From Planctomycetia bacterium (GTDB lineage Bacteria > Planctomycetota > Planctomycetia > Pirellulales > Thermoguttaceae): a DNA stretch of 58,784 bases. Numbering within the stretch: the stretch's first letter is position 1; every line of letters begins with the position of its first letter. The stretch lies in assembly GCA_030527185.1 (NCBI GenBank), contig JAUNBF010000015.1:1-58784 (forward strand), written 5' to 3'. A model generated the notes under the pieces. That model did not search any database, was not told the origin of the DNA, and was given only the letters and a program-made list of their open reading frames with translations. The position numbers were made by a program, and so were the translations under genes. Positions 33,982-54,720 of this stretch are shown in pieces.

Positions 33982-34971
33982 ATGAAAAAGAAACTGTTGA
34001 TTATGTTATTATTTGCGTTTCCGTGTCTGCTTTTTGCGGAAGAGGCGGTTCGGACGTGGAAATCGAAGGCGGGGAAAACGATTCTTGAGGCGAAGTGGGA
34101 CGCGGAAAACGACGCGGAGGAAGAGGTGAAACGTTTGGCGAATATCCCTCGTCCAACGATTTCAGATATACCGCAGATATTACCGGCTTCGGACGGTCGG
34201 ACGGCGGGTGAGCGGATGGTGAAAACCATCAACGGCGTGGAGTATGCTTTCCGTTGGTGCCCGGCAGGGGAGTTTATGATGGGTAGTCCAGAGGGTGAGT
34301 TGGGGAGGTATGACGATAGCGACGAAACACAACACCGTGTGAGACTTACAAAAGGCTTTTGGATGTTGGAAACGGAAGTGACGCAGTCGATGTGGGAGAG
34401 TGTGATGGGCGAAAGTATTGAAACAAAGGCAAAACAGGGAATATATGGTTCATCGCTTGCCGGAACGGGTTCCAACTATCCGATGTATTATGTGAGCTGG
34501 GAAGATTGTCAGGAATTTTGCCGGAAGTTGCGATCTCTTGGTTTGGACGTCCAATTACCTACAGAGGCGCAATGGGAATACGCATGTCGCGCAGGCACGA
34601 CGATAAGTCTTAACAATGGTAAGAATATCACGAGTGAGGAAGGAAGTTGTGACAACCTCAATGAAGTGGGTTGGTATAGTAAAAATTCGGATTCGACGAC
34701 CCACATAGTGGGTCAGAAGAAGCCGAACGCGTGGGGCTTGTACGACATGCACGGGAATGTATGGGAGTGGTGCCAGGACTGGTTTGACTCAGGTTATTAC
34801 GCTAAGTCGCCAACGAGCGACCCAGAAGGGCCTAGTAGTGGCGCAGGCCGGGTGAATCGTGGCGGGGGCTGGGGCAGCAACGCGAAGGGCTGCCGTTCGG
34901 CGATTCGGTACTACAATACGCCGACGTATCGCCGCAATATTCTGGGCTTCCGCCCTGTCCTCGTCCCTTAG
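33982..34971 (+). CDS. Secreted FGE/C-type-lectin-fold protein with DGR variable region (caspase-less form)
   Basis: This 329-residue exported protein has a signal peptide (LLIMLLFAFPCLLFA), half of an SHD1 domain (RTWKSKAGKTILEAKWDAEN, residues 24-43), and then directly the FGE-sulfatase-type domain from VEYAFRWCPAGEFMMGSPEG to the end. The SHD1-caspase part of its relatives is missing. The join (DAEEEVKRLANIPRP) fuses the start of SHD1 to the linker before FGE, exactly where both carry GCGGAGGA-type repeats. The last 42 residues are a DGR-type variable region (34846-34941). In that region only one of the two active-site cysteines of true FGE is kept, so ligand binding rather than sulfatase activation is likely. 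Confidence 0.85.
   Translation: MKKKLLIMLLFAFPCLLFAEEAVRTWKSKAGKTILEAKWDAENDAEEEVKRLANIPRPTISDIPQILPASDGRTAGERMVKTINGVEYAFRWCPAGEFMMGSPEGELGRYDDSDETQHRVRLTKGFWMLETEVTQSMWESVMGESIETKAKQGIYGSSLAGTGSNYPMYYVSWEDCQEFCRKLRSLGLDVQLPTEAQWEYACRAGTTISLNNGKNITSEEGSCDNLNEVGWYSKNSDSTTHIVGQKKPNAWGLYDMHGNVWEWCQDWFDSGYYAKSPTSDPEGPSSGAGRVNRGGGWGSNAKGCRSAIRYYNTPTYRRNILGFRPVLVP
34846..34941 (+). other. DGR variable region VR1
   Basis: These 32 codons align without gaps with VR2, VR3 and VR4. At the variable codons the third base is mostly fixed as C or T, while the first two bases are free: for example GGC here against CGC, TTC and TAC, and AAT here against ATT, TTT and TAT. Fixed codons (CGT, GCG, TGC, TCG) contain no A. 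This pattern follows from A-specific mutagenesis of an AAY-rich template. Confidence 0.9.
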
Positions 34972-35056
34972 TTCAATTCGTTTGAGCATCGCGTAGGCGG
35001 TCGAACGAACGCGAAGGAGCGAAGCGGAGCCGTCCCGAAGCAGAGAGTGAGAAACG
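34942..35056 (+). repeat. Conserved block after VR1 (IMH-like, first subtype)
   Basis: From CTGGGCTTCCGCC through the stop codon and about 85 bp beyond, this matches the segments after VR2, VR3 and VR4. It shares the GAAGGAGCGAAGCGGAGCCG subtype with VR2. The hairpin GCGGTCGAACGAACGC is slightly imperfect here. GC-rich sequence and a hairpin just past the variable region is where DGRs place the initiation-of-mutagenic-homing site. Confidence 0.65.
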
Positions 35057-35110
35057 CTGGAGTATTGAATATTCACTTTTTACGTAAGTTGGCTATTTTT
35101 GTGGGTATCC

Positions 35111-35139
35111 TTGTAATTCACACATGGTTTTTGTACAAT
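35111..35139 (+). promoter_or_regulatory. Sigma70-like promoter of the 35195 gene
   Basis: The -35 box TTGTAA (35111-35116), a 17-bp spacer and the -10 box TACAAT (35134-35139) lie 56 bp before the start codon. An almost identical promoter is found at 37358-37386. Confidence 0.65.
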
Positions 35140-35194
35140 CATAAAGAGACGAGATGATGAGAGTACGATTTTCGTTGTGTCAGGAGTATAAATA

Positions 35195-37183
35195 ATGAAA
35201 ACACGTCTTTTTTTCTTTGTTTTCTGGCAATTTGCCTGCATTGTTGGTGTATGGGCGGAGGGAGAAAACGTCCTCGCCCGGTTTGCAAATCAGGAAAATC
35301 CACAGGAGTCGCGGAAGTTTGCGCTGTTGGTCGGCGTAACGGATTACACAGAGTTAAGCAAGCTTTCTTATTGTGTGAATGGGGTTCATGCAGTGAGGAA
35401 GGAACTGATCAAGCTGGACTTCAAACCAGAGGATATTCATATTCTTTCTTCTGGATCGAACGAATTCAAACACTTGCCGACAAGGAAAAATTTTGAAAAA
35501 ACGTTGGATTCCATTCTCCTGCAAATAGAAGAAAACGCTCAGGAAAACGAGAGTAAGAAAAAAGAGCAGAGCAACATACTCTTTTTTATGTTTTCGGGGC
35601 ACGGTTTGGAAAAGGACGACGCGCAATATCTCTGCTTGACAGACACGGAACATAATAATCTCTCGGAGACGGCCTACCCCATTCCTCAACTGCTAGAAAA
35701 ATTAAACCGTTCCAAAGTGGATTTCAAATGGGTGGTCATCGACGCGTGTCGTGAAAAGTTCACCGACAAAAAAAGTTTGCCCGGTGAAACGACGTTGGAG
35801 GAGATCGACAATCCACCGCCTGGGGTTTTTCTTTTTCAGTCGTGCAAGTCGGGGCAGTCCAGTTACGAGCCATTTTGGGAGCCGGGGACGATACCAGAAG
35901 GTCAACAACCGCTTGGTATTTTCACGGAATGCTTTGTCGAGGCGCTTTCTGGCAAAGCGGATTCGGATCAGGACGGCAACCTGACGCTTATGGAAGTCTG
36001 TAAGTACACCACCGAGTTGACCAGCAACAAAGCGTGGGAAAATCACCAGAAATTCCAATATCCGTTTTTCCAATGGGACGGTTCCGATTTCATCCTGAAG
36101 TCCGACCTGAAACGCCAAAGGGCACGAAAACTCCATAGCGAAGCGAAGCAACTTTTCGGTGAGAAGCGGTATGCGGAGGCGAAAGTGAAGATTTCGGAGG
36201 CATTGGAATTGTGTCCGAAGGATTGCGAATACGCGCAGTTTGAAATTACGATTGAGCAATTTTTGAAGCTTGTCGAGCAGAACGCAGAGTTGGAGCGAAA
36301 GGCGCAGGAGGCTGCGGAAAAAGCACGTTGGGCGGAGGAAAAAGCGAAACGATTGGCGAATATCCCCCGTCCGACGCTTCCAGACGTACCGCAGATATTA
36401 CCCGTTTCGGACGGTCGGACGGCGGGTGAGCGGATGGTAAAAACCATCAATGGCGTGGAGTACGCTTTCCGTTGGTGCCCGGCAGGGGAGTTTATGATGG
36501 GCAGCCCAGAGGGTGAGTTGGGGAGGTATGACAATGAAAAGCAACACCGAGTGAGACTTACAAAAGGTTTTTGGATGCTGGAAACGGAGGTGACGCAAGC
36601 AATGTGGGAGAGCGTGATGGGAACGACGGTTTCGCAACAGAGGGATAAAGGCAATAAAGATTGGTCACTTCGTGGAACAGGTCCGAATTACCCGATGTAT
36701 TATGTGAGTTGGGAGGAATGTCAGGCATTTTGTCATAATTTGCGATCTCTTGGTTTGAATGTTCAGCTTCCCACGGAGGCACAGTGGGAGTATGCTTGCC
36801 GTGCAGGCACGACGACAAGTCTTAACAATGGGAAGGATCTTACAAGTACAAATGGAAGTTGTTACAACCTTAACGAAGTAGGTTGGTATGATGAAAATTC
36901 GGATTCGACGACCCACATAGTGGGTCAGAAGAAGCCGAACGCATGGGGTTTGTACGACATGCACGGGAATGTATGGGAGTGGTGCCAGGACTGGTTTGAC
37001 TCAGGTTATTACGCAGAGTCGCCAACGAGCGACCCAGAAGGGCCTAGTAGTGGTGCGCGCCGGGTGATTCGTGGCGGTGGCTGGAGCAACTTCGCGAAGG
37101 GCTGCCGTTCGGCGCTTCGGTTCAGCAATACGCCGACGTTTCGCTACATCATTCTGGGTTTCCGCCTTGTCCTCGTCCCTTAG
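35195..37183 (+). CDS. Secreted caspase-EF-hand-FGE fusion with DGR variable region
   Basis: The signal peptide (FFFVFWQFACIVGVWA) is followed by a C14 caspase-like domain (residues 42-250). FALLVGVTDY opens it, His136 is in FMFSGHGLEK, and Cys185 is in WVVIDACREK. An EF-hand loop (D256-x-D-x-D-G-x-L-x-x-x-E267) comes next. A helical linker with AEEKAKRLANIPRP leads to the FGE-type domain (about 405-662), ending in the variable region VR2 (37058-37153). Unlike the proteins at 43717 and 52559 it lacks SHD1 between signal and caspase. AGGAG precedes the ATG. The layout suggests a ligand-sensing domain controlling an extracytoplasmic protease. The target is unknown. Confidence 0.88.
   Translation: MKTRLFFFVFWQFACIVGVWAEGENVLARFANQENPQESRKFALLVGVTDYTELSKLSYCVNGVHAVRKELIKLDFKPEDIHILSSGSNEFKHLPTRKNFEKTLDSILLQIEENAQENESKKKEQSNILFFMFSGHGLEKDDAQYLCLTDTEHNNLSETAYPIPQLLEKLNRSKVDFKWVVIDACREKFTDKKSLPGETTLEEIDNPPPGVFLFQSCKSGQSSYEPFWEPGTIPEGQQPLGIFTECFVEALSGKADSDQDGNLTLMEVCKYTTELTSNKAWENHQKFQYPFFQWDGSDFILKSDLKRQRARKLHSEAKQLFGEKRYAEAKVKISEALELCPKDCEYAQFEITIEQFLKLVEQNAELERKAQEAAEKARWAEEKAKRLANIPRPTLPDVPQILPVSDGRTAGERMVKTINGVEYAFRWCPAGEFMMGSPEGELGRYDNEKQHRVRLTKGFWMLETEVTQAMWESVMGTTVSQQRDKGNKDWSLRGTGPNYPMYYVSWEECQAFCHNLRSLGLNVQLPTEAQWEYACRAGTTTSLNNGKDLTSTNGSCYNLNEVGWYDENSDSTTHIVGQKKPNAWGLYDMHGNVWEWCQDWFDSGYYAESPTSDPEGPSSGARRVIRGGGWSNFAKGCRSALRFSNTPTFRYIILGFRLVLVP
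37058..37153 (+). other. DGR variable region VR2
   Basis: It aligns codon by codon with the other three. Typical variable codons here are CGC, ATT, AGC, AAC, TTC, CTT, TAC and ATC, where templates AAC or AAT explain all of them. The surrounding fixed codons are the same as in VR1. Confidence 0.9.
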
Positions 37184-37275
37184 TTCAACCGTTTGAGCTA
37201 TTGCGTAGGCGGTCGAACGAACGTGAAGGAGCGAAGCGGAGCCGTCCCGAAGCAGGAAGAGAGAAACGCTGGAGC
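37154..37275 (+). repeat. Conserved block after VR2 (IMH-like)
   Basis: It matches the block after VR1 up to GAAACGCTGGAG. Its continuation (GCGTAAATTCCTTCC, to about 37300) matches the end of the block after VR4, so it looks like a recombinant of the two subtypes. Confidence 0.65.
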
Positions 37276-37357
37276 GTAAATTCCTTCCCCCGTTTGCGGG
37301 GAGCGGCTAAAGCTGGTACTGGAATGAACGGGTGGTGGGTTATTTTTGGGGGTGTCC

Positions 37358-37386
37358 TTGTAATTTACACAAGGTTTTTGTACAAT
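37358..37386 (+). promoter_or_regulatory. Sigma70-like promoter, twin of the 35111 promoter
   Basis: TTGTAA (37358-37363), a 17-bp spacer, then TACAAT (37381-37386). The match to 35111-35139 covers both boxes and nearly all of the spacer, so one was copied from the other or both are held by selection. Confidence 0.65.
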
Positions 37387-37446
37387 CGTGGAGAGGTGGG
37401 AGGAACGGTAAATGATGATTTCCGTGATGACGAGAGAATGGGGACG

Positions 37447-37611
37447 ATGAAACAGTACGTTTTTTCTTGGTTTTCTGGTTGTTTACAGCTGTTTAAGGAG
37501 GGCAGATTGGTGACGCTCCGCGGGGAACGGTTTTGGAAAACGGGGCAGGCTCAAAATTTTTTTGGAAATATTTTGTATTTTTTTGCAATTTCACTCTCAA
37601 ATTTACTATAA
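37447..37611 (+). CDS. Short open frame, uncertain
   Basis: These 54 codons begin ATGAAACAGTACG, like the opening of the neighbouring genes, and continue with Phe-rich sequence (NILYFFAISLSNLL). It lies 60 bp after a clear promoter but has only a weak ribosome-binding site and no family resemblance. It may be a truncated remnant. Confidence 0.2.
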   Translation: MKQYVFSWFSGCLQLFKEGRLVTLRGERFWKTGQAQNFFGNILYFFAISLSNLL

Positions 37612-37701
37612 CGTAATAGCGGTGGAGGGGTTTGTATCGAATATCCTTCCAGATTGTATCCGAGGAGATGTTTTCAACTTTTTTTCAACAGGAGAAATTT
37701 C

Positions 37702-38127: not shown

Positions 38128-38157
38128 CGCCTTTCGGAAACCGTGGGAGGAGAAGAA

Positions 38158-38922: not shown

Positions 38923-38923
38923 G

Positions 38924-40393
38924 ATGTTCAAAATGATACGTTGGGGAATTGTGCTGATTTTTCTTCTGTGGCTCTGCCCTGCCGTGACGCAAGGTTATGA
39001 GGAAGTGGGAGAAGCCCAAAAAAGAGTCTGGTCGGGGTACTGGTGGCCGATTCGCAACGGCGGAATCATCGAGCCATTGAAAAGTTACGACTTTTTGGCC
39101 CGTCGGAAAGCGGTTGCGTGGGAGCTGAAAAACAATCCTCCCGGTCCCGAAGTTCCGCAATGGTTCGGTTTCTGTCATGCGTGGGCAGCTTCCGCCGTGA
39201 TGGAGCCGGAGCCGCAAAAGGTGCTGCAATCGCGTGGGCAGTTGCTTTCCATCGGGATTCAGAAAGGTTGGCTGGCAGCCAGTCATGCGGAAGACGAATG
39301 CAATTTTTTTGGCCGACGTTATGAAGAAGGGGAAGATTTTCAGGATATTGCCCCGGAAGAATTTTGGCGAGCTTTGAAAATACACATTCGTGAGCAGGGA
39401 ATCCCGATCGTGGCAGACCTGGAGCCAGGAGAATCGGTCTGGAATTACCCGATTTATAAATATCGTGTGCAGCATACTCCGCAAGGGGAAAAGGTTGTCG
39501 GGACGATTGAAATCTGGTTTGCCGACGATTCCGTCCCACCCGATTTTATCGGATTGAAAAGTGCCTACAAACGCTATGAATTTGAGGCACAGACGCGAGA
39601 CGGTGCCATCCTCGTCGGAAGTGGCAAGTGGATCGGGCAAAGTGTGAACGACCATCCCGATTTTCTCTGGTTTCCGTATGTCGCCAAACCGGAAAATCCT
39701 GAGGTTCTTTATCCGTGGATTCGTCAAACGCTTGCCCTTTCTCTGACCGAGCCACAACCAGAACCCCAGCCGGAACCAACACCGGAACCGGAACCAACCC
39801 CAGAGCCAGTCACCGAAATTCCCACGATTTCCCCTGAAGAGTTGATCGATTTGATTGCGACGCAGAAATCGGACTTTATGTTGGACATGACGGTGGACAA
39901 ATTTGACGGTGGCGTCTATCGGGAAGGCGATTCGCTCACGGTTTCGCTCCAGTCTGCCCGTGGCGGGTATCTGTACCTGATCGGCATTCTTCCCGAAGGA
40001 AAGCCTTTTGTACTGTATCCGCAGCCGGGCGACAACAATCGGATTGCCGGGGCGGAAGAAATCACCATTCCCCACCCCGATTCACGTTACACATTTCTTT
40101 TGAAAGAGAAACTGGGGACGTACCATATCAAGGCGATCGTGACGGATAAACCGGTAGAATTTGTGGGTTGGACCGCTTCCGAGGCACCTGCGAACGCGTC
40201 GAGCAAGGAACTCAATCTGGCGAATGAATCTTTCCACTGGCCGCCTGCGAGTATGGCAGGGGTATCGCGTGGGATGGAATTGGTGTATCAGAATGAGCGG
40301 GAAGCGGACGTTCGGCAACTGCTTCGTGAACGATTCCATATCACAGCTTTTGCCCAGGATGAAACTGTATTTGTCGTCATTCCTCAAAAATAG
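38924..40393 (+). CDS. Exported transglutaminase-elicitor-like enzyme with DUF4384 domain
   Basis: The signal peptide (IVLIFLLWLCPAVTQG) is followed by a domain whose WFGFCHAWAASAVMEPEP (Cys84-His85) resembles the catalytic segment of the TGase-elicitor family, in which Cys starts acyl transfer. Residues from 105 to 250 (FQDIAPEEFWRAL, VWNYPIYKYR) support that call. Next is a Pro/Glu spacer (QPEPQPEPTPEPEP, about 275-300). A DUF4384 domain then runs over about 340-420 (YREGDSLTVSLQSARGGYLY, FVLYPQPGDNNRI). The same DUF4384 appears in the next two proteins, beside caspase domains. Cross-linking of envelope proteins is a reasonable guess. Confidence 0.65.
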   Translation: MFKMIRWGIVLIFLLWLCPAVTQGYEEVGEAQKRVWSGYWWPIRNGGIIEPLKSYDFLARRKAVAWELKNNPPGPEVPQWFGFCHAWAASAVMEPEPQKVLQSRGQLLSIGIQKGWLAASHAEDECNFFGRRYEEGEDFQDIAPEEFWRALKIHIREQGIPIVADLEPGESVWNYPIYKYRVQHTPQGEKVVGTIEIWFADDSVPPDFIGLKSAYKRYEFEAQTRDGAILVGSGKWIGQSVNDHPDFLWFPYVAKPENPEVLYPWIRQTLALSLTEPQPEPQPEPTPEPEPTPEPVTEIPTISPEELIDLIATQKSDFMLDMTVDKFDGGVYREGDSLTVSLQSARGGYLYLIGILPEGKPFVLYPQPGDNNRIAGAEEITIPHPDSRYTFLLKEKLGTYHIKAIVTDKPVEFVGWTASEAPANASSKELNLANESFHWPPASMAGVSRGMELVYQNEREADVRQLLRERFHITAFAQDETVFVVIPQK

Positions 40394-40427
40394 ACTTTAG
40401 ATACCACAACAAGAAAGGGAAGTACCC

Positions 40428-41792
40428 ATGAGATATTTTTGCATTGCCATCCTGTTGCTTTGGAATGGTTTGCTCGTCTCCGGCGAAGAAATGTCGAGAG
40501 GCATGGTTCTGGAAGAGATGGGAAACGAGAAACCTTCGTTTTTCGTTCGCGTATCCGTGAATCATGAGAACCTGGAATATCAGGAAGGAGACCTGTTGCA
40601 GGTCCAAGTTCGTGCCAGTGAAAGTGGCTACCTGTATCTTTTTTACCAGGACGCCAGCAATCAAGTGAGCCTGTTGTATCCCAATCAGTATGATTCGGAG
40701 CATTACATTTCCAAAAATACGGATATTCAGATTCCTTCTCCGGGGCAGAATTTCCGAATTCGCACGGCAGCCCCCTTTGGTGAGGAGCGGTTATTGGCCG
40801 TTGTCACCAAAAAGCCTTTGCAGACGGCACGGTCGATACAGCTTTCGCGGAATGTGACGAGCCTTTCCGCAAAGGATGTCAGCCGATTTTCCAAAGAATT
40901 GCTCTCCAAAACTGGCGAAACCACGCTCTCTTCTGAAGAGTGGGCAGAACAATTGCTTCGGATTCGTACATTTCCCGCGTCCGCACCTTCGCCATCCCCC
41001 TCTCCCACACCTTCCCGGAAAACCAATCGTTTTTTGATTTGTATCGGTGTCAGTCATTATGAGGATGAGAAGATTCCGCCACTCCCCCCTTGCACGAAAG
41101 ATGTTAAGAACCTTGCCCGGTATTTCCTTTCCCAGGGGCTTCCAGAAAATCACATTGTCGTGCTGCTCGACGAACAGGTTACGATGGCCAATATTCGTGC
41201 GTTGTTTTGCGAGGAACTTCCCCAAATAACCAAACCTGGAGACGAAGTGATTCTTTTCTGGACAGGGCATGGAAACCAATGTGCCGATGAAAATGGCGAC
41301 GAAAAGGATGGGAAAGACGAAACCCTGGTACTTTACGATTCCCGTCGTCTGGAGCCGGAAACGCAATTGCTGGACGACACGTTCGGGCGTTGGATACAGA
41401 ATCTGGATGGCCGTAAAATTCTGGTGATTCTGGACGCCTGTCACAGTGCGGGGTTGGCATCGTCGAAATCCTTTTTCAATTCCAGGAGCACTCCTGTATG
41501 GGATTTTGGTTTCAACGAAATTTCCAGCATGAAAGATTTGGGACAACGGAATCTGGCTATCATCGCCTCTTCCACCAGTTCGCAACCATCACTGCTTCGT
41601 GTGGAAAACGACATGAGCGTCATGACCTATTTCCTTCTTCAGGCACTGAACGAACGCCAAGGGTGGACACACGACGCACTTTTCCAGAAAATCCGTCCCC
41701 AAGTCAAAGAATACGTAAAAGAGAATTATTATGGTGCCCAGCAGGATATGGAACTTCAGGATGACATGGAATCCCCCATGCAGTTGAATTAG
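40428..41792 (+). CDS. Exported DUF4384-caspase protein
   Basis: The signal peptide at residues 1-19 is followed by DUF4384 (about 45-135: LEYQEGDLLQVQVRASESGY, VSLLYPNQYDSE). A Pro/Ser linker leads to a C14 caspase-like domain (about 200-450). It opens FLICIGVSHYEDE; His281 is in LFWTGHGNQ and Cys338 in VILDACHSAG, so the dyad is complete. An acidic insert (ENGDEKDGKDE) follows the histidine. No FGE domain or variable region is present. DUF4384 upstream of a caspase is a recurrent architecture in bacterial protease clusters. A hairpin (GGGCAA/TTGCCC) lies in the gap to the next gene. Confidence 0.85.
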   Translation: MRYFCIAILLLWNGLLVSGEEMSRGMVLEEMGNEKPSFFVRVSVNHENLEYQEGDLLQVQVRASESGYLYLFYQDASNQVSLLYPNQYDSEHYISKNTDIQIPSPGQNFRIRTAAPFGEERLLAVVTKKPLQTARSIQLSRNVTSLSAKDVSRFSKELLSKTGETTLSSEEWAEQLLRIRTFPASAPSPSPSPTPSRKTNRFLICIGVSHYEDEKIPPLPPCTKDVKNLARYFLSQGLPENHIVVLLDEQVTMANIRALFCEELPQITKPGDEVILFWTGHGNQCADENGDEKDGKDETLVLYDSRRLEPETQLLDDTFGRWIQNLDGRKILVILDACHSAGLASSKSFFNSRSTPVWDFGFNEISSMKDLGQRNLAIIASSTSSQPSLLRVENDMSVMTYFLLQALNERQGWTHDALFQKIRPQVKEYVKENYYGAQQDMELQDDMESPMQLN

Positions 41793-41977
41793 GGATTAGC
41801 AAAAAATAGCGTGGGCAACGGTTTGACAACGATTGCCCGCAAACGAGCCGTGAATCAATAGCGGAACCGGCATTTCGGAAATCGCTGTGTCCACGGCTTT
41901 GTCGTTTGGGAGGATTGTTTTGTGGAACATTCATGAGAAAAAAGTTTTATTCAATGTGATCAAAGAACGGTGAAAAA

Positions 41978-43630: not shown

Positions 43631-43716
43631 TTTTTTTGGGGAATATTGAGAAATTTCAGACCATTTGTGGGTTCGTTCCCATGAATGGTTTTGGGCATTT
43701 ATAGAAAGAAAAAACC

Positions 43717-45825
43717 ATGAAAAAGACGCTACTATTACTGATTTTGGCGACGCTTCCCTGCCTGCTTTTTGCGGAGGAGGCGATTCGAGCGTGGAAATCG
43801 AAGACGGGGAAAACGATTATCGAGGCGAAGTGGGATTCGGAGAACGACGCGGAGGAGGAGACGGTGTTTCTGTCGAAAAATGGGAAGCGGTACAGGATTC
43901 CACTGAAAAATCTCTCGGAAGAGGATCAGAAATACGTCTTTGACGGGCGGGCGAAAAAGGCACAACGTGGCAGTGAGGAGGAAGACTTCGGGCTGGAGGA
44001 GGTGACGGAGGAAAAGCCGTCGGGAGGTGCGTTTGAAATGCCGAAGGCGCGGAAGTTTGCGGTGTTGGTTGGGGTGACGGAGTACGCGACGATGCATGAT
44101 CTGCGTTACACCGTCCGCGACGTGGAGGCGATTCGAGAGCAACTGTTGAAATTGGGATTTGAGGACGAAAATATATACCTTCTGACGACGAAAAATGAGG
44201 ACGTAGCCAAGGTTCCGACGCAACGCAACGTCGAGCGGACGATCGCGTCGGTACTTTCGCAGGCAGGGGTGGGTGATTTGGTCTTTTTCGCGTTTGCGGG
44301 GCACGGCGCGCAACTGGGCGATACGGCTTATTTCTGCACGCAGGACACGATTGACGAAGACATTTCGGGCACGGCAGTCTCGATCACGCAGGCGATGGAC
44401 GATTTGGCGAAATCGGAGGCACGGTTCAAGTGGATCGTTGTAGACGCGTGCCGCAACAACCCATTCCGCCAGCGTGTTGCGGGGGTGCGTTCGATACAGA
44501 AAATCGACAACCCGCCAGAGGGGATAGCGCTCTTTCAGTCGTGCGCACCGGACGAATTCAGCTACGAAGACGAGAGCGTCAAACATGGTCTGTTCACGAG
44601 CAATTTTGTTCGCGGCTTGAGCGGCGAAGCGGACTTGAACAACGATGGTTCGCTGACGTTTCTGGAAGTCTGCACGTACACCACCAACCAGACCGTCCGC
44701 GACGTGCAAACGAAATTCCAGAAACACCAACGCCCCTACCTGACCAGCAGCATGTCGGACTTCATCCTCACCGAAGACCTCGACCGCCCGAAAGCGATTG
44801 CGTATTTCGCCGCGGCACAGCAACTGCGGCGTGAGAAGAAGTACGACGAGGCGAAACGGGAAATCGACAAAGCGTTGGAGTTGTACCCGGAGGATCAGGA
44901 ATATCTGGATGAGCGTGGAATGCTCCAAACGATTGTTGACGCAATAGCGAAGCAAAAGGAGTTGGAGGAAAAAGCTCGAGAAGAGGCTGCGGCTCGTAAA
45001 AAAGCGGAGGAAGAGGCGAAACGATTGGCGAATATCCCCCGTCCAACGCTTCCAGACGTACCACAGATATTACCCGCATCGGGTGGTCGGACGGCGGGTG
45101 AGCGGATGGTGAAAACGGTGAAGGGCGTGGAGTACGCTTTCCGTTGGTGCCCTGCAGGGGAGTTTATGATGGGTAGTCCAGAGGGTGAGTTGGGGAGGTA
45201 TAGCGAAGAAACGCAACACCGCGTGAGACTTACGAAAGGCTTCTGGATGTTGGAAACGGAAGTGACGCAAGCGATGTGGGAGAGCGTGATGGGAGATAAT
45301 CCGAGTAATTTCAAGGGGAGCAATCTTCCTGTGGAGAAAGTTAGCTGGAAGGACTGTCAAGAATTTTGCCAAAAGTTACGCTCTCTTGGTTTGAACGTTC
45401 AGCTTCCCACGGAGGCCCAGTGGGAATATGCTTGCCGGGCAGGTACGACGACAAGTCTTAACAATGGTAAGAATATCACGAGTGAGGAAGGAAAAGGAAT
45501 TTGTTACAACCTCAGCGAAGTGGGTTGGTATGAGAAAAATTTGGATTTGACGACCCACATAGTGGGTCAGAAGAAGCCGAACGCGTGGGGTTTGTACGAC
45601 ATGCACGGGAATGTTTATGAATGGTGCCAGGACTGGTATGACTCAGGTTATTACGCCGAGTCGCCAACGAGCGACCCAGAAGGGCCTAGTAGTGGCGCGT
45701 TCCGGGTGTTTCGTGGCGGTAGCTGGAACAGCATCGCGAGGTTCTGCCGTTCGGCGTTTCGGTTCCACAATACGCCGGCGCATCGCGTCGACGCTCTGGG
45801 CTTCCGCCTGGCTCTCGTCCCTTAG
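43717..45825 (+). CDS. Secreted SHD1-caspase-EF-hand-FGE fusion with DGR variable region
   Basis: The signal peptide (LLLLILATLPCLLFA) is followed by an SHD1 domain (residues 23-78). The caspase-like domain covers about 110-300, with FAVLVGVTEY, His196 in FAFAGHGAQ and Cys245 in WIVVDACRNN. An EF-hand loop is at 306-317. A TPR-like helix and coiled-coil linker (KALELYPEDQEYLDERGM) precede the FGE-type domain (about 460-702), which ends in VR3. Bases 43754-44000 are identical to 52596-52842, while the caspase part differs strongly. One of the two FGE active-site cysteines lies at a variable codon and is absent. It is the full-length form of the family in this window. Confidence 0.9.
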   Translation: MKKTLLLLILATLPCLLFAEEAIRAWKSKTGKTIIEAKWDSENDAEEETVFLSKNGKRYRIPLKNLSEEDQKYVFDGRAKKAQRGSEEEDFGLEEVTEEKPSGGAFEMPKARKFAVLVGVTEYATMHDLRYTVRDVEAIREQLLKLGFEDENIYLLTTKNEDVAKVPTQRNVERTIASVLSQAGVGDLVFFAFAGHGAQLGDTAYFCTQDTIDEDISGTAVSITQAMDDLAKSEARFKWIVVDACRNNPFRQRVAGVRSIQKIDNPPEGIALFQSCAPDEFSYEDESVKHGLFTSNFVRGLSGEADLNNDGSLTFLEVCTYTTNQTVRDVQTKFQKHQRPYLTSSMSDFILTEDLDRPKAIAYFAAAQQLRREKKYDEAKREIDKALELYPEDQEYLDERGMLQTIVDAIAKQKELEEKAREEAAARKKAEEEAKRLANIPRPTLPDVPQILPASGGRTAGERMVKTVKGVEYAFRWCPAGEFMMGSPEGELGRYSEETQHRVRLTKGFWMLETEVTQAMWESVMGDNPSNFKGSNLPVEKVSWKDCQEFCQKLRSLGLNVQLPTEAQWEYACRAGTTTSLNNGKNITSEEGKGICYNLSEVGWYEKNLDLTTHIVGQKKPNAWGLYDMHGNVYEWCQDWYDSGYYAESPTSDPEGPSSGAFRVFRGGSWNSIARFCRSAFRFHNTPAHRVDALGFRLALVP
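45700..45795 (+). other. DGR variable region VR3
   Basis: It aligns with the others without gaps. Variable codons here include TTC, TTT, AAC, AGC, ATC, CAC, GTC, GAC and GCT, which need A-to-N changes at one or both first positions of AAC or AAT. GCT against ATT and TAT at the last variable codon needs two such changes. Confidence 0.9.
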
Positions 45826-45905
45826 TTCAATCCGTTTGAGCATCGCGTAGGCGTTCGAGCGAACGCGTAGGGGCGAAGGCGGATGCCCGCCCCGAAGTAG
45901 GGAGG
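45796..45905 (+). repeat. Conserved block after VR3 (IMH-like, second subtype)
   Basis: It contains a perfect hairpin GCGTTCG-AG-CGAACGC and a second one GGGGCG...CGCCCC, both also after VR4. It shares with VR1 and VR2 the start of the block through TTTGAGCATCGCGTAGGCG. Confidence 0.7.
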
Positions 45906-45951
45906 GGAATGTATTTTTTTTCAATTTATCACAATCACAAAGGAGAAAACC

Positions 45952-48057: not shown

Positions 48058-48136
48058 ATTTGCCAAAAACCCCACAAACATCCCAGGGGACACAACCATC
48101 GCGTCCCCTTCACCCTTCACCCACAAGGAACAACCC

Positions 48137-51100
48137 ATGAAAACAATCCTAACCCTCCTACTCCCCCTTCTCCTCCTTGCCACCACCACACAGGCAGAAG
48201 AACCTGTCCGCACATGGAAATCCGCCTCCGGCGCCGTCGTCCTCGAAAATGCCGCATGGGATAACCAAAATGATCCCGACCCCAGTACGGTTTATTTTAT
48301 CAAAAATGGACAAAGATATAAATTTGCGTTAAATCAACTGTCTCAAGAAGACCAGAAGTACGTGACCGATGGGAGAATGACAAAAAATGAAGCGGGTGAC
48401 GCAGAGGATGGTGTTCCGCAGCTTACACCGGTGATTCAAAGCGGGCATAGGTACGGCGTGGACAGTTTTGTCTTTACACCAGATAAACAACATCTTATTG
48501 CTTCAGGTGGCGATATACTTTTGTGGAATGTCGAAACCGGAAAACAGATAAGAACCTATAGTGATGACTTCGCTGTGTTTGGGTTAACTCAAGATGGAGA
48601 GGAGGTTTTTGGATGGGATCACAGTGATTATTATAAGCTAAACATAAAAACAGGGGAAGTGCAGAAAAGAGAGATTGTTGATTGGGACAACTATGCGTGT
48701 TTTAAAGATGAAATTTCTTTTGATCAATATGGGACGAAAATACTCCTTATTGAAAAAAAGGAAGTGGAAAGACTAGCAAGAGCAGGGCTCTTTGACACGG
48801 AAACCAAAAGGCGTGTCGCAACGTTTCATACAAAAGGAAATATTGAAAAAGGACTTCTTAGTTCTGATGGAGAAATTACCGTCTTTTATTCTGTCGAAAA
48901 AATAGAAACACGGGTTCCTGATGAAGAAAAAAGCTCATTTCATTCCATGTTTACTGCCGTACCAGAAACAAAAACTACAATCACACATTATTTGCAAGCA
49001 TTTGATAGTAAATCTGGTAGAAATCTTTGGACAAAAACAGTCGAAATCGATTCTTTTAGTGATATGGTTATCATGCCTCAAAAGAAATGTATCGCACTTC
49101 TGGGGTATACGCATTCCGAAGATAGCCCTAAAATACTCATTTATAACTTATATAGTAGCAGTGTTCAAACGCAGTTTCATGTAAACTTGAAAGAGAAATA
49201 TAGCGCAACTCTCGCTGTTTCCCCAGTGGGAAACCAGATTGCCGTTTCCGATGGCGCGGATATCCGCGTTTTCGACACGAATAACAGGCGAGAAATCGTC
49301 TTTTGCAAAGGAGGCGCAAACGAAATTGACAATCTTAAATTTTCTCCAGATGGAACAAAGGTTGTCGCGACTTCTAACACAATCATTATTTTTGATTTAA
49401 TCTCAAAATCACACGTAGTTTTAGGGCAAGAACGCCCCAGTGATTACGGTCTAGAATGTTGGACAGCAACTGCGGATGGCAAAACGGTCGTTACTTTTTA
49501 CCGTCGTAATGTTCTTGTTTACGACGGTAAAACCGGTTTTTTGGAAAAATGGTTAAAACACCCACACCCAGAAAAATCTCACAGCCAGTCCATACTTTCT
49601 ATAAGTGATAATGGAAAGTTTGTCGTCATGTGTTCCAAATCTTCTGATGTTGCAGAAATAGTAATATGGGATAGAGAAACAGGCGATGTGATTGAAACGA
49701 TTTCTTTTGAATCTTACAATTATTCTGGTAGTATGCCTGCTATTGATTTTTCACCTGATAGCCAACGATTGGCTTGTTTTTGTTTCACAGAAAAAAATGA
49801 TAAAAAATATGAGCAACTTTTTGTCTATGATGTGGTACGTCAGCAAAAATTAACAGATTCAAAGAAAGAAGTGGCATGGGGAGATAAGTGTGGCTATATT
49901 CGATTCGATGCAAACGGCCAGAAACTATATGGAAATGCTGGCGAAGATTTTTGTTGCTGGAACGCAAATACCGGAACCAAACGAGTTTTATTCCATATCG
50001 ACAATCGCCATACTCCAGAAGCATGTCTATCTCCAAGCGGGAAATACATTGCTTCATGGCAATATAAAGAGGTTCCCAAAGAAGACATTGAACGTTCTGG
50101 TAAAATCCTAATCTATGACACACAAACCATGCGGATTGTAAAAACTCTGTGGGTTGATTACCTGGATGGTGTATATTTAAATAATTATGAATATCTCGAA
50201 TTTTCACATGACGATAAATATCTGTGGATACGAGAACCGGTACGTGATGGGACTTCAGAGCGCCTCAAAAATTTGCTATGTTTAGATATACAATCAGGGC
50301 AAATTGTAAGAAGAATACCGTTACCATTTGGTTTTCGCTATGAAACAGACAATTTTTGCGTAACCTCTGACAATGGTGTATTGGCATATTATGGTACGGA
50401 CGATATCCTTATGAAATTTGACGCAACATCTGGTTGTCCTATTGTGCAATATGAAAGTGGACAGTCGGACCATATATCAAATTGTCAGTATGATGAGAAT
50501 ACGGATAGAATCATTGCCTCTGGAAATAAAATTTCTTTTATTGATTCAAAATCGGGCTCGCTTTTACAGTCCATTCCCACAATCGACGACTCTGTTTGTG
50601 ACTTCACTGTTTGCGAAAATAAACAATACGCACTGATTTGTAGTGACAGAGATGAATTCTTTTTTTCATTTTGGGATATTCAACAAATGCGTCCAATCAA
50701 CTCATTTTATACGACAAGAGAAGGTTATATATCGGAAATGAGCCTTCGGAGTGATGGGATTGCCGCAGTCTTATTTTATCAGTCAAGAGATAAAAATACT
50801 ATACGTTATGGAGAAAGCGATTATGTTTATACACTTCTTTTTATTGATGCAAACACAGGGAAGTTTCTGCGACAAGTATCACTCCCTATCCAGAAAAAAA
50901 GAGAGGGAACTACCCAAAACTCACTAATATGGACCGATGACAATCAATTCCTGTACACGCATTCCTGCTGGGAAGATAAAGACAAGGATGAAGCGACTAC
51001 TTTGAACTATCGGGTCAATCTGCGTAATTATCAACTCTCCTACGATGAGAAGCTCGAACAAAAGAAATATCCATATCCAAAATCTGAGGAAAAGGAACTT

Positions 51101-52537
51101 GAGTTCGTTTTTCAAGATAAAGCCGAAAAAATATCGTACCGGCTTTCTGATTGTATGACAGAGAATATTGCTAATTCAGGCGGCTTTTTTATCGATACCC
51201 AAAACAATCGAGCCCTCATGCGTTATATGTTCTTCAACTCCGGTCGGGACTGGCTTGTCATCACCCCTGAAGGCTTATTTGACGGGACACCGGAGGCGAG
51301 GCGGATGGTGGCGTATCGGGTGGGGGAGACGTTGAACGTGCAGCCGGTGGAGGCGTTTTTCCAGGACTTTTATTATCCTGGGCTGTTGGGGGCGATTTGG
51401 AAAGGGGAACGGCCGATGCCGAGCGTGAAGGTGAAGGAGCAGTTACCGCCGGAGATTGTGATTGTGTCGCCGAAGGGTGGGGAGACGACGGAGGGGAAGG
51501 TACGGTTTGAGGTAGTGGTGAAGGATCAGGGGGGCGGGATTCAGAAGCCATCGATTACGGTAAATGGTGTAGGGGTTGGCGTGAAGGAGAAACCGATAAC
51601 GTCGGAGAAGGAGGTACGGTGGTCGTTTGATTTACCTCTGGCCAATGGGGAGAATCAGGTGGTGATTCGTTCGGCAACGGCAGATGGGCAGATTGCGTGC
51701 GAATCGATACCGGTGACGATCCATTACGCACAGGCGTTGGAGAATCCCCCTCGGCTTTTTGTGCTGACGGTAGGCGTAAGCGACTATACGGCAGGCGGTG
51801 CGTTTGATTTGCAGTGTGCGGCGGCGGACGCGCAGGCTTTGGCGAAGGCATTTGAGACGAACGGGAAGAAATTTTACGGCGAGGAGGGTGTTTTTGTCCG
51901 AACGCTGACGGAGAAAGACGTTACGAAAGAGCGGATTCAGGAAGCGGTTCGTGAGATTGCGGAAAAATCACGGCCGGAGGACGTGTTTGTCTTTTCGCTG
52001 GCCGGGCACGGTGCGACGGTGGGGCAATTGTACTATTACTTCCCGGTCGATTTTCCATTTGAGGAGGATCACCAGCCGGTCGATTCGGTAATTCGCGAGA
52101 GCGGCATTGGTGGCGACATTCTCAACGACTGGATCAATTCGGTGCCGGCGATGAAGCGTATCGTGATTTACGACACGTGCCAATCCGAGGCCGCTTTGAA
52201 GCGTAGTGCCATGGAGGAACGCAAGGCGATGGAGATGCTTTCCAAGATGACGGGCTGTTTCACGATTGCGGCTGCGTCGGGCAAAGAGGCAGCGTTGGAG
52301 CTTCCCGACATGGGGCACGGCGTTTTGACATACGCGCTTCTGGGCGGTTTGGGCGCGGCGGAGAAAGGGCTGCTGAAAGACCGTTCGGCAGTGTCTGACG
52401 ACGGACTCATTCGCGTTCGCGACTGGCTTGGTTTTGCGCAGGACAACGTCGGCAAACTCTCCGAGCTTTCCTTCGGCACCGAGCAACGAGCGATTTTCCA
52501 GGCAGGAGCGAACAATTTCCCGATTCTGAAAAAGTGA
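48137..52537 (+). CDS. Exported SHD1-WD40 propeller-caspase protein
   Basis: This 1466-residue protein starts with a signal peptide (LTLLLPLLLLATTTQA) and an SHD1 domain (about 21-78). A very long WD40-like part (about 95-1030) follows, with units such as FSPDGTKVVATSNTIIIFDL and LSPSGKYIASWQYKEVP. A beta domain (EIVIVSPKGGETTEGKVRFE) precedes the C-terminal caspase. That domain opens FVLTVGVSDYTAGG near residue 1210, His1291 is in LAGHGATVG and Cys1348 in IVIYDTCQSEAA. The central part is visibly AT-rich compared with the ends, changing near 48290 and 51285, which suggests a swapped propeller. Two or more propellers would fit the length. It carries no variable region. Confidence 0.82.
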   Translation: MKTILTLLLPLLLLATTTQAEEPVRTWKSASGAVVLENAAWDNQNDPDPSTVYFIKNGQRYKFALNQLSQEDQKYVTDGRMTKNEAGDAEDGVPQLTPVIQSGHRYGVDSFVFTPDKQHLIASGGDILLWNVETGKQIRTYSDDFAVFGLTQDGEEVFGWDHSDYYKLNIKTGEVQKREIVDWDNYACFKDEISFDQYGTKILLIEKKEVERLARAGLFDTETKRRVATFHTKGNIEKGLLSSDGEITVFYSVEKIETRVPDEEKSSFHSMFTAVPETKTTITHYLQAFDSKSGRNLWTKTVEIDSFSDMVIMPQKKCIALLGYTHSEDSPKILIYNLYSSSVQTQFHVNLKEKYSATLAVSPVGNQIAVSDGADIRVFDTNNRREIVFCKGGANEIDNLKFSPDGTKVVATSNTIIIFDLISKSHVVLGQERPSDYGLECWTATADGKTVVTFYRRNVLVYDGKTGFLEKWLKHPHPEKSHSQSILSISDNGKFVVMCSKSSDVAEIVIWDRETGDVIETISFESYNYSGSMPAIDFSPDSQRLACFCFTEKNDKKYEQLFVYDVVRQQKLTDSKKEVAWGDKCGYIRFDANGQKLYGNAGEDFCCWNANTGTKRVLFHIDNRHTPEACLSPSGKYIASWQYKEVPKEDIERSGKILIYDTQTMRIVKTLWVDYLDGVYLNNYEYLEFSHDDKYLWIREPVRDGTSERLKNLLCLDIQSGQIVRRIPLPFGFRYETDNFCVTSDNGVLAYYGTDDILMKFDATSGCPIVQYESGQSDHISNCQYDENTDRIIASGNKISFIDSKSGSLLQSIPTIDDSVCDFTVCENKQYALICSDRDEFFFSFWDIQQMRPINSFYTTREGYISEMSLRSDGIAAVLFYQSRDKNTIRYGESDYVYTLLFIDANTGKFLRQVSLPIQKKREGTTQNSLIWTDDNQFLYTHSCWEDKDKDEATTLNYRVNLRNYQLSYDEKLEQKKYPYPKSEEKELEFVFQDKAEKISYRLSDCMTENIANSGGFFIDTQNNRALMRYMFFNSGRDWLVITPEGLFDGTPEARRMVAYRVGETLNVQPVEAFFQDFYYPGLLGAIWKGERPMPSVKVKEQLPPEIVIVSPKGGETTEGKVRFEVVVKDQGGGIQKPSITVNGVGVGVKEKPITSEKEVRWSFDLPLANGENQVVIRSATADGQIACESIPVTIHYAQALENPPRLFVLTVGVSDYTAGGAFDLQCAAADAQALAKAFETNGKKFYGEEGVFVRTLTEKDVTKERIQEAVREIAEKSRPEDVFVFSLAGHGATVGQLYYYFPVDFPFEEDHQPVDSVIRESGIGGDILNDWINSVPAMKRIVIYDTCQSEAALKRSAMEERKAMEMLSKMTGCFTIAAASGKEAALELPDMGHGVLTYALLGGLGAAEKGLLKDRSAVSDDGLIRVRDWLGFAQDNVGKLSELSFGTEQRAIFQAGANNFPILKK

Positions 52538-52558
52538 TCTTAAACGAGGATACAAACG

Positions 52559-54625
52559 ATGAAAAAGCTATTGATTTTACTGGTTTTCGCGGCAATTCCC
52601 TGCCTGCTTTTTGCGGAGGAGGCGATTCGAGCGTGGAAATCGAAGACGGGGAAAACGATTATCGAGGCGAAGTGGGATTCGGAGAACGACGCGGAGGAGG
52701 AGACGGTGTTTCTGTCGAAAAATGGGAAGCGGTACAGGATTCCACTGAAAAATCTCTCGGAAGAGGATCAGAAATACGTCTTTGACGGGCGGGCGAAAAA
52801 GGCACAACGTGGCAGTGAGGAGGAAGACTTCGGGCTGGAGGAAGTGACGGAGGAAACCGCAGACGAAACATCGAAAATTCCGTTTGAGATACCGAAGGCG
52901 CGGAAGTTTGCGTTGTTGGTGGGGGTGACGGATTACGTGGAGATGAGCGGGCTGACGTGTTGTGTGAAGGACATTCACGCAATTCGTAACCAGTTGATAA
53001 AACTGGGGTTTAAGGAAAATGACATCTATATTCTGGAGTCGGGCAAGGCGATGAAGGATTTGCCGTCGCGGAGGAACATTTTGGAGCGTCTGGACTTGGT
53101 TCTGGGGCAGACGCAGGCGGGGGATATGTTTTTTTTCGCGTTCGCGGGTCACGGTGCCGAGACGGGGCGTGAACAGTACATTTGCCCGGCAGAAACGGAG
53201 TTGGAAAATCTGTCTGAGACGGCTGTTCCTATTCCGTTGATTTTGAAGAAGTTGGAAGAATCGGAAGCACGGTTCAAGTGGCTGGTGGTGGACGCTTGCC
53301 GCAACAATCCGTTCAATCGTCGCGTGCCGGGGGCGACGACGCTCCAGCGAATCGACAACCCGCCGAAAGGGGTTTTGCTCCTTCAATCGTGTGGGCAGGA
53401 CGAGTACAGCCACGAAGACCGCAATCTTGGCCAGGGCATTTTCACCGCCAGTTTCGTCGAAGCTCTTTCCGGCAAGGCGGATCAGAATCAGGACGGCACG
53501 CTCACGCTGATGGAGGTCTGTTCCTACACGACAGAATCGACCAACCGCCGTGCGCTCGACCTTTTCCAGAAGTACCAACGTCCCTATTTCAACGGCGACA
53601 TCACCGATTTTGTGTTAACCGAAGACCTCAACCGCCCGAAGGCCATTGCGTATTTCGACGCTGCACAGAAACTGCGACGTGAGAAGAAATACGACGAGGC
53701 GAAACGGGAAATTGACAAGGCGTTGGAATTGTACCCGGAGGATCAGGAATATCTGGATGAACGGGGCATTATTCAGGGATACGTGGAACAAATAGCAGAA
53801 AAAGCCCGCTTGTTGGAGGAAAAGCGATTGGCCGAAGAAGCTCGTAAAAAAGCGGAGGAAGAGGCGAAACGATTGGCGAATATACCTCGTCCGGTGCCGG
53901 GGAGTACTCCGCAGATATTGCCCGCATCGGGTGGTCGTACTGCGGGTGAGCGGATGACAAAAACGATTAACGGTGTGGAATATGCGTTTCGTTGGTGTCC
54001 TGCGGGAAGTTTTACGATGGGAGCTGGGGTTTCATATGAGAAAGATCATACTGTGCGTTTAACGAAAGGTTTTTGGATGTTGGAAACGGAGGTGACGCAG
54101 CGGATGTGGAAGAGCGTGATGGGCGAGAATCCGAGTGGTTTTTCAAACGCTGGGTATAGGAAAGACGAAGTTTCGGGTATGAATACGGACAATTTTCCAG
54201 TGGAGAATGTCAGCTGGGAGGATTGCCAGGAATTTTGCCGGAAGTTGCGTTCGCTTGGTTTGAACGTTCAATTACCCACCGAGGCTCAGTGGGAGTATGC
54301 CTGTCGCGCGGGCACAACGGGAGAATATGGCGGAACCGGCAATCTTGACGATATGGGTTGGTATAAAGATAACAGCGATGAGCGAACGCATGAGGTCAAA
54401 ACAAAGAAGCCGAACGCGTGGGGTTTGTACGACATGCACGGGAATGTATGGGAGTGGTGCCAGGACTGGTATGACTCAGAAGGGCCTAGGAGTGGCACGT
54501 ACCGGGTGTATCGTGGCGGTGGCTGGATCAACTACGCGGAGCACTGCCGTTCGGCGAATCGGTACTACGATACGCCGACGTTTCGCGGCAACTATCTGGG
54601 CTTCCGCCCTGTCCTCTTCTCTTAG
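52559..54625 (+). CDS. Secreted SHD1-caspase-EF-hand-FGE fusion with DGR variable region (second full-length copy)
   Basis: This is the closest relative of the 43717 protein. Signal peptide and SHD1 (residues 1-78) are followed by caspase with FALLVGVTDY, His198 in FAFAGHGAE and Cys247 in WLVVDACRNN. The EF-hand D308-x-N-x-D-G-x-L-x-x-x-E319, a coiled-coil linker and an FGE-type domain (about 465-688) come next. The FGE domain ends in VR4. The pre-variable FGE region has its own loop (GVSYEKDHTVRL instead of GELGRYSEETQHRVRL) and lacks the SPTSDPE stretch before the variable region. The TGxYxGxGNL loop also differs. Bases 52596-52842 are identical to 43754-44000. It is the last gene before the CHAT protein, which points the other way. 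Confidence 0.9.
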   Translation: MKKLLILLVFAAIPCLLFAEEAIRAWKSKTGKTIIEAKWDSENDAEEETVFLSKNGKRYRIPLKNLSEEDQKYVFDGRAKKAQRGSEEEDFGLEEVTEETADETSKIPFEIPKARKFALLVGVTDYVEMSGLTCCVKDIHAIRNQLIKLGFKENDIYILESGKAMKDLPSRRNILERLDLVLGQTQAGDMFFFAFAGHGAETGREQYICPAETELENLSETAVPIPLILKKLEESEARFKWLVVDACRNNPFNRRVPGATTLQRIDNPPKGVLLLQSCGQDEYSHEDRNLGQGIFTASFVEALSGKADQNQDGTLTLMEVCSYTTESTNRRALDLFQKYQRPYFNGDITDFVLTEDLNRPKAIAYFDAAQKLRREKKYDEAKREIDKALELYPEDQEYLDERGIIQGYVEQIAEKARLLEEKRLAEEARKKAEEEAKRLANIPRPVPGSTPQILPASGGRTAGERMTKTINGVEYAFRWCPAGSFTMGAGVSYEKDHTVRLTKGFWMLETEVTQRMWKSVMGENPSGFSNAGYRKDEVSGMNTDNFPVENVSWEDCQEFCRKLRSLGLNVQLPTEAQWEYACRAGTTGEYGGTGNLDDMGWYKDNSDERTHEVKTKKPNAWGLYDMHGNVWEWCQDWYDSEGPRSGTYRVYRGGGWINYAEHCRSANRYYDTPTFRGNYLGFRPVLFS
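54500..54595 (+). other. DGR variable region VR4
   Basis: It has the most A at variable codons (TAC, TAT, AAC, AAT, GAC-type), close to the inferred template. Unlike the others it also differs at two fixed codons just before the region (AGG and ACG for AGT and GCG) and at the last two residues. Confidence 0.9.
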
Positions 54626-54720
54626 TTCAATCCGTTTGAGCTATCGCGTAGGCGTTCGAGCGAACGCGTAGGGGCGAAGGCGGATGCCCGCCCCGAAGCA
54701 GAGAGTGAGAAACGCCGGAG
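54596..54720 (+). repeat. Conserved block after VR4 (IMH-like, second subtype)
   Basis: It carries the GCGTTCG-AG-CGAACGC and GGGGCG...CGCCCC hairpins as after VR3. The GAAACGCCGGAGCGTAAATT tail that follows matches the sequence after VR2, so the tail and the hairpin part have been combined differently at the four sites. Confidence 0.7.

What the first reader, a model, noticed from the sequence alone, without database searches (positions are those of the whole stretch)
33982..54625. Four FGE-domain genes carry DGR-type variable regions
The 32-codon segments at 34846, 37058, 45700 and 54500 align without gaps. They vary almost only at the first two bases of codons with a fixed pyrimidine third base. 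Examples across the four copies: GGC/CGC/TTC/TAC; AAT/ATT/TTT/TAT; AAC/TTC/ATC/TAC; GGC/GGC/TTC/CAC; ATT/CTT/TTT/AAT; CGC/TAC/GTC/GGC; ATT/ATT/GCT/TAT. All are explained by AAC or AAT templates with A changed to any base, while codons without A (CGT, GCG, TGC, CGT, TCG) are fixed. Two first-position cases (AGC to GGC; ACG to GCG) fit as well. Established knowledge: DGR reverse transcriptases copy a template repeat with errors at adenines and write it into the end of C-type-lectin-fold genes, often of the FGE type. The protein pattern RGGxWxxxAxxCRSAxR is a typical DGR target.
Basis: partly seen in the sequence, partly recalled or inferred. Interest (0 to 1): 0.96.

Follow-up and report, generated by a model that had tools for sequence, protein, structure and literature searches.

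The report
Caspase-lectin genes rewritten by hidden retroelement
Four genes in this bacterium end in a short stretch that varies almost only at the positions where related bacteria carry adenine in a template copy, so they were likely rewritten by a known kind of mutation machine, a diversity-generating retroelement, whose enzyme and template were not found in this draft genome.

Summary
The four segments align without gaps; 32 of 108 columns vary (15/14/3 by codon position), and 28 of these fall on the 33 columns that are A in the template repeat (TR) of a same-genus genome. Upstream in the same genes, differences are mostly at third positions. Three of seven congeners carry a diversity-generating retroelement (DGR) cassette: a reverse transcriptase (RT), an HRDC accessory gene, and an AAC-rich TR matching their variable repeats (VRs). 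Within this genome the VRs share non-A bases that differ from two sister species, although the gene bodies are far more diverged; this indicates rewriting from one template after the species split. A conserved element follows every C-terminal VR gene here; its only other match at E<=0.01 lies beside a decayed VR remnant. RT, TR and accessory gene were not found in this 91%-complete assembly. These are DGR target genes, three of them caspase-FGE fusions that look exported, with the cassette unassembled, lost or elsewhere. Remote targets and targets without a cassette are published (Treponema denticola, Thiohalocapsa). New member of a known kind.

The parts
33982..34971 (+). Target gene A: apparent signal peptide plus FGE domain (PF03781), no caspase domain
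   Evidence: signal peptide read by eye from the sequence, no predictor run
34846..34953 (+). VR of gene A (36 codons, the last four CTGGGCTTCCGC, IMH-like position)
34972..35062 (+). Conserved noncoding element after the stop codon of gene A
   Evidence: 87% to gene D's; DNA fold of 34972-35071 no better than shuffles (z 0.22)
35195..37183 (+). Target gene B: apparent signal peptide, caspase domain (PF00656, GHG and DACR motifs present), FGE domain
37058..37165 (+). VR of gene B
37184..37301 (+). Conserved noncoding element after the stop codon of gene B
   Evidence: 84%; DNA fold worse than shuffles (z 1.55)
43717..45825 (+). Target gene C: apparent signal peptide, caspase, TPR (below cut-off), FGE domain
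45700..45807 (+). VR of gene C
45826..45904 (+). Conserved noncoding element after the stop codon of gene C, with predicted GC hairpin
   Evidence: 96%; z -1.34
52559..54625 (+). Target gene D: apparent signal peptide, caspase, TPR (below cut-off), FGE domain
54500..54607 (+). VR of gene D
54626..54760 (+). Conserved noncoding element after the stop codon of gene D; inverted repeat 54649-54670, then predicted GC hairpin
   Evidence: z -2.60

Best explanation
The 3' ends of these four FGE-domain genes are variable repeats that were most likely written by a diversity-generating retroelement: a reverse transcriptase would copy an AAC/AAT-rich template with errors at adenines and the copy would replace the gene end, probably using the VR 3' end and the element after the stop codon as landing site. 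Shown: adenine-column specificity, sparing of third positions, a nearly uniform set of non-A bases in this genome that differs from its sister species, a VR-associated element downstream, and RT-HRDC-TR cassettes in three congeners. Inferred: that a cassette of this VR type existed in this lineage after it split from its sister species, and that it now lies in an assembly gap or elsewhere in the cell. Inferred function: the four proteins look exported; the variable C-type-lectin face would bind changing ligands and, in three of them, an attached caspase domain would act on binding.
For: Variable columns fall on congener-TR adenines (28 of 33 versus 4 of 75). TR versus VR in the same genome: G004 205 of 363 A mismatched versus 36 of 825 non-A (11 VRs); G007 87 of 165 versus 13 of 375 (5 VRs); G003 93 of 160 versus 15 of 380 (5 VRs). 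Body third-position difference among the six own copies 39%, VR non-A third-position difference 3.0%; the latter is 10.6% against G001 and 13.6% against G005. Gene D's FGE body groups with a G005 gene (support 1.0), yet its 71 non-A VR bases equal those of gene C. The element after the stop follows 5 of 5 C-terminal VR genes of this genome; the only other match at E<=0.01 is 26 bases beside a decayed VR. TvpA (2y3c) is the best PDB match by sequence (E 9.4e-37) and by fold (E 1.8e-16).
Against: No RT, no TR and no HRDC accessory gene were found in the assembly, nor in four of seven congeners. 5 of 8 genomes lacking them has p 4e-4 at 10% loss each, 0.027 at 25%. Only 1 of 6 own VRs lies near a contig end. 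No TR of this VR type turned up in 119 family genomes, viral contigs, phages or plasmids. The non-A uniformity is not general: G005's VRs differ by 6.3 of 71 among themselves. Over its whole length gene D's closest listed relatives are Planctomycetia proteins at 74-75%, one on a contig of G001's C71 length, so its grouping with G005 holds for the FGE part only, on a long branch. Covariation in the downstream element is weak (0 of 11 pairs); folds at A and B do not beat shuffles, and those at C and C84 (z -1.34, -1.14) are no better than the stretches after two congener TRs (z -0.93, -1.48).
Confidence: 0.93

Rival explanations
1. Relic: the cassette was lost recently in this lineage, and the VRs are frozen copies of past retrohoming.
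For: RT, TR and HRDC accessory gene were not found here or in four of seven congeners. A decayed VR gene end sits on contig C174 (read by eye). Published T. denticola isolates keep target genes without RT and TR (passages of PMC4891356). In G003 and G002 one locus is 97.6% identical over 1417 bases with an unchanged VR.
Against: Non-A positions of the six own VRs are still nearly identical (1.9 of 71 differ on average), so any loss must be recent. The assembly is only 91% complete.
Confidence: 0.35
2. No retroelement: ordinary paralogue divergence with positive selection on a binding face, plus gene conversion that keeps the rest alike.
For: The genes are paralogues on one contig, and FGE-fold domains have a ligand face (established knowledge).
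Against: Gene conversion would homogenise the variable sites too. Third positions in the VR are nearly fixed while the gene bodies differ at 39% of third positions. Variable sites coincide with congener template adenines.
Confidence: 0.03

Closest known systems
Treponema denticola DGR (TvpA targets, HRDC accessory protein)
   Same: Targets of the TvpA fold (TvpA is the best PDB match); HRDC accessory gene overlapping the RT gene in the three congener cassettes as in T. denticola; remote targets; isolates without the core cassette (passages).
   Different: In T. denticola the accessory gene lies between TR and RT (passage); in the congener cassettes the order is HRDC, RT, TR. Three of the four window targets are caspase-FGE fusions; 62% of T. 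denticola targets carry lipoprotein signals (passage).
Thiohalocapsa PB-PSB1 and clade 5 DGRs (PMC10907252)
   Same: Several scattered targets, degenerate loci lacking RT or TR, diversification in trans, caspase-like or CHAT domains in or near targets, a short lectin-only target beside long ones (passages).
   Different: No MoxR, VMAP or STAND component was recognised in the 28 window ORFs scanned; one VWA protein lies at 25287-29183. Which RT clade the congener RTs belong to was not tested.
Cyanobacterial DGR variable proteins with orthocaspase domains (PMC7517822)
   Same: Orthocaspase-like peptidase in the N-terminal part of a DGR variable protein (passage).
   Different: Here three apparently exported caspase-FGE targets lie among further caspase-fold genes.
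Bordetella phage BPP-1 target site (PMC3240598)
   Same: Inverted repeats just downstream of VR; [quoted passage not shown]
   Different: The element here is about 80-135 nt with more than one predicted hairpin; BPP-1 needs 24 bp, and its VR ends in a 14-bp GC-only stretch, whereas CTGGGCTTCCGC here contains T.

Membership tests
DGR target gene (VR-bearing) | Substitutions restricted to template-adenine positions | tested here: met
   28 of 33 A columns versus 4 of 75 others, using a congener TR
DGR target gene (VR-bearing) | VR at the end of a C-type-lectin/FGE fold | tested here: met
   PF03781 in all four; TvpA best by sequence and by fold for gene D
DGR target gene (VR-bearing) | GC-rich 3' end of VR (IMH) shared with TR | tested here: inconclusive
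   GGCTTCCGC or a one-base variant ends the six own VRs, and GGCTTCCGC ends the three congener TRs, but it is not GC-only and its function was not tested
DGR target gene (VR-bearing) | Hairpin/cruciform downstream of VR but not of TR | tested here: inconclusive
   Conserved element after 5 of 5 own C-terminal VR genes and not seen after the three congener TRs, but own DNA fold z-scores range from +1.55 to -2.60 and covariation is weak
Complete DGR in this genome | DGR-type reverse transcriptase | tested here: not met
   0 hits with PF00078 and with a profile of four DGR-type RTs at E<=10; the assembly is 91% complete
Complete DGR in this genome | Template repeat | tested here: not met
   Pattern and BLAST find the six VRs and, beyond them, only 14-29-base matches at E>1
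Complete DGR in this genome | Accessory protein (Avd or HRDC) | tested here: not met
   0 hits in G000 with the HRDC accessory profile at E<=1; Avd itself was not searched
DGR in the genus (G003, G004, G007) | RT + TR + accessory + VRs mutated at A | tested here: met
   2 of the 8 plasmid rows listed for the G007 RT have an annotated DGR protein Avd under the match
Formylglycine-generating enzyme (catalytic) | Catalytic cysteine pair and sulfatase substrate | not tested
   The TvpA match (9.4e-37) is far better than FGE enzymes (1.9e-15)
Caspase-fold peptidase | His-Cys dyad | tested here: met
   GHG and DACR motifs in genes B, C and D (dyad assignment recalled); MALT1 paracaspase and metacaspase folds matched by gene D; activity not testable

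The most novel reading that the evidence does not exclude
The template and RT of this VR type are not chromosomal in this lineage: they ride on an unbinned mobile element and diversify chromosomal caspase-lectin targets in trans in at least three sister species. The large element after each target's stop codon is the address tag that lets a C-terminal gene copy be found, so new targets arise simply by duplication of a tagged gene.
Probability: 0.12. Interest if true: 0.65.

Novelty: new member of a known kind. Interest (0 to 1): 0.45.

Why it matters
It adds a well-controlled example of DGR-diversified caspase-lectin proteins that look exported, in a planctomycete-type genus. It also offers a test usable without the template: congener TR columns predict variable sites, and non-A bases evolve in concert within a genome. 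The VR-associated element after the stop codon is a concrete candidate for target recognition. The missing cassette in five of eight genomes makes the question of trans action, assembly gap or serial loss directly testable with long reads.

Tried and rejected
Own-genome RT by Pfam and by a profile of four DGR-type RTs, TR by pattern and BLAST, HRDC accessory by profile: none found. Exact VR-type pattern in IMG/VR: none; in GTDB genome contigs: 12 stretches, 10 from Planctomycetia MAGs (isolates S1R_St_37, 39, 60), 1 Bacteroidales and 1 Lentisphaeria; the last two hold VR-like sequence and no ORF over 150 aa with Y[MAVL]DD in the stretch held. One 281-base query (VR of gene D plus element) in plasmids and phages: no match. 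RT relatives in viral contigs (80 loci kept) were not followed up. Covariation of the downstream element: 0 of 11 pairs in the own-type set, 1 of 24 in G007, 0 of 24 in G003/G002. A common genomic site for the congener cassettes was sought, to look for an empty site here; the neighbouring ORFs differ in the three genomes, so this was not possible. The idea that VRs always re-diversify was dropped: one G002/G003 locus has identical VRs in 97.6% identical sequence.

Rows: identical segments within one genome were listed once, and G006's single VR was left out. In one search the truncated G004_L113, the divergent G004_L039 and the shifted G003_L111 were kept. In one search, 18 of 21 type-1 members were used; G001_L093 and G005_L107_1422 were dropped for short upstream sequence, and G004_L113 for that and as the only one of its genome. 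The 1250-base limit was chosen after seeing the positions.
Full report
OBSERVATION. B, C and D also carry a caspase domain (PF00656). All four begin with what looks like a signal peptide (read by eye; no predictor was run). Over 36 aligned codons 32 of 108 columns vary, 15/14/3 by codon position.

CONTROL INSIDE THE GENES. In the FGE domain upstream of the segment, all six gene pairs differ most at third positions (for example B-D 49/37/83 over 175 codons). In the 32-codon segment third-position differences are 0-2 per pair and first plus second 14-23. Ordinary paralogue divergence does not do that.

TEMPLATES IN THE GENUS. The window is the whole contig C51 of an assembly of 4.29 Mb in 174 contigs, 91% complete. 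Eight genomes of the genus are held. Matches to the VR pattern (up to 3 mismatches) were found in all eight, in G006 only one. Three, G003, G004 and G007, have an RT with YMDD and a GxxxSQ-type motif, an HRDC protein gene overlapping it, and an AAC-rich template repeat directly after the RT gene. That these motifs mark DGR RTs is recalled; 2 of the 8 plasmid rows listed for the G007 RT have an annotated DGR protein Avd under the match, at under 40% identity. In those genomes VRs differ from TR at 205 of 363 A versus 36 of 825 other bases (G004, 11 VRs), 87 of 165 versus 13 of 375 (G007, 5) and 93 of 160 versus 15 of 380 (G003, 5).

NON-CIRCULAR TEST. Taking a congener TR as predictor, the four window VRs vary at 28 of 33 A columns and 4 of 75 others (G004 and G007 TRs) or 26 of 32 and 6 of 76 (G003 TR). 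With the two further VRs on contig C84 the counts are 31 of 33 and 6 of 75 (G004). The Fisher p-values treat columns as independent. Fourteen AAC/AAT codons in the inferred template would allow about 15^14 proteins per VR (own arithmetic).

CONCERTED CHANGE. At the 71 columns that are not A in any of the three congener TRs, the six own VRs differ by 1.9 on average, versus 4.6 from G001 and 6.2 from G005. In the subset with long upstream sequence (18 of 21 members), VR non-A third positions differ by 3.0% within this genome, 10.6% from G001 and 13.6% from G005, while the gene bodies of the own copies differ by 39% at third positions. Gene D's FGE body groups with a G005 gene with support 1.0, yet its non-A VR bases equal those of gene C. 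One template per species, used after the species split, explains this best. Limits: G005's own VRs are less uniform (6.3 of 71); gene D sits on a long branch; and over its whole length its closest listed relatives are two Planctomycetia proteins at 74-75%, so its parts have different histories.

ELEMENT AFTER THE STOP CODON. A conserved noncoding stretch of about 80-135 nt follows the stop of every C-terminal VR gene: 5 of 5 in this genome, at 84-100% identity to gene D's over the matched part. The only other match at E<=0.01 in 4.29 Mb is 26 bases on C174, beside what reads as a decayed VR gene end. Related elements follow VRs in G001 and G004 and one in G005; G007 and G003/G002 have different sequences with predicted GC hairpins. 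No such element is seen after the three TRs. Predicted DNA folds exceed shuffles clearly after a G007 VR (z -4.3) and gene D (z -2.6), but not at A or B (z 0.22, 1.55); those at C and C84 (z -1.34, -1.14) are no better than the stretches after the TRs of G007 and G004 (z -0.93, -1.48). Covariation is slight. In BPP-1 a 24-bp stretch with inverted repeats downstream of VR is required for efficient homing, and the stem sequence can vary (PMC3240598 passages). The likeness is suggestive and untested.

STRUCTURE AND FUNCTION. The FGE domain of gene D matches TvpA, the Treponema denticola DGR variable protein, at E 9.4e-37, far ahead of FGE enzymes at 1.9e-15. The model of gene D (mean pLDDT 81.5, pTM 0.48, VR region about 49-68) has TvpA as first fold match and MALT1 paracaspase next. 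GHG and DACR motifs are present in B, C and D. The neighbourhood holds more caspase-fold genes (40428-41792, 45952-48057, the caspase end of the WD40-like gene 48137-52537) and a CHAT gene at 55101-58214. PADLOC returns only its caspase model, for 6 of 7 proteins, and nothing for gene A. A variable exported sensor with a caspase output is my inference.

MISSING CASSETTE. RT, TR and HRDC accessory were not found in this assembly or in four congeners; no TR of this VR type turned up in 119 family genomes (up to 2 mismatches), viral contigs (exact), or phages and plasmids (one 281-base query). For a gap: completeness is 91%; 24 of 50 VRs in the genus lie within 1250 bases of a contig end versus 8.9 expected, a limit chosen after seeing the positions; and in G003 and G004 the cassette itself lies within about 330 and 100 bases of a contig end. 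Against: 5 of 8 lacking has p 4e-4 at 10% loss each and 0.027 at 25%, and only 1 of 6 own VRs is near an end. Loss is a real alternative: T. denticola isolates without RT and TR keep targets (PMC4891356 passages), and Thiohalocapsa has degenerate loci and trans diversification (PMC10907252 passages).

KNOWN OR NEW. Lectin/FGE targets, HRDC accessory, remote targets, caspase-like or orthocaspase fusions and strains without the cassette are each in print (passages; PMC8144416 gave only two passing passages). No paper was read whole. I ran six paper searches, none for the study behind these MAGs, so I do not claim that this genus's DGRs are unpublished. I file the window genes as DGR target genes, a new member of a known kind, and do not file this genome as holding a complete DGR.

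Noticed in passing
G000 contig C84, locus L105 1175 and 2000: One protein with two tandem FGE domains, each with a VR; the first VR is internal, not at the gene end, and lacks the element downstream.
   Followed up: partly
L143 about 1360-1530 (G000:C174): What reads as a decayed VR gene end with part of the same element downstream, on another contig of this genome.
   Followed up: partly
G003 C137, G004 C176, G007 C276 (L111, L110, L109): The three congener cassettes sit beside different ORFs, and the RTs of G007 and G003 are only 46% and 48% identical to that of G004, as if gained separately or long diverged.
   Followed up: partly
L036 (G003) and L044 (G002): A target locus 97.6% identical over 1417 bases between two species with an identical VR: no re-diversification since they parted.
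   Followed up: partly
window 38924-52537 and 55101-58214: Dense cluster of caspase-fold genes (C14, C14 with WD40-like repeats, CHAT-TPR), plus a transglutaminase-elicitor/DUF4384 protein at 38924-40393.
   Followed up: no
window 33982-34971: Gene A looks like a caspase-FGE gene that lost its caspase domain by an internal deletion (N-terminus and linker resemble those of C and D, by eye).
   Followed up: no
VR loci of G000-G007: VRs sit near contig ends more often than expected (24 of 50 versus 8.9, limit chosen afterwards), so DGR targets and cassettes may be under-counted in short-read MAGs.
   Followed up: partly
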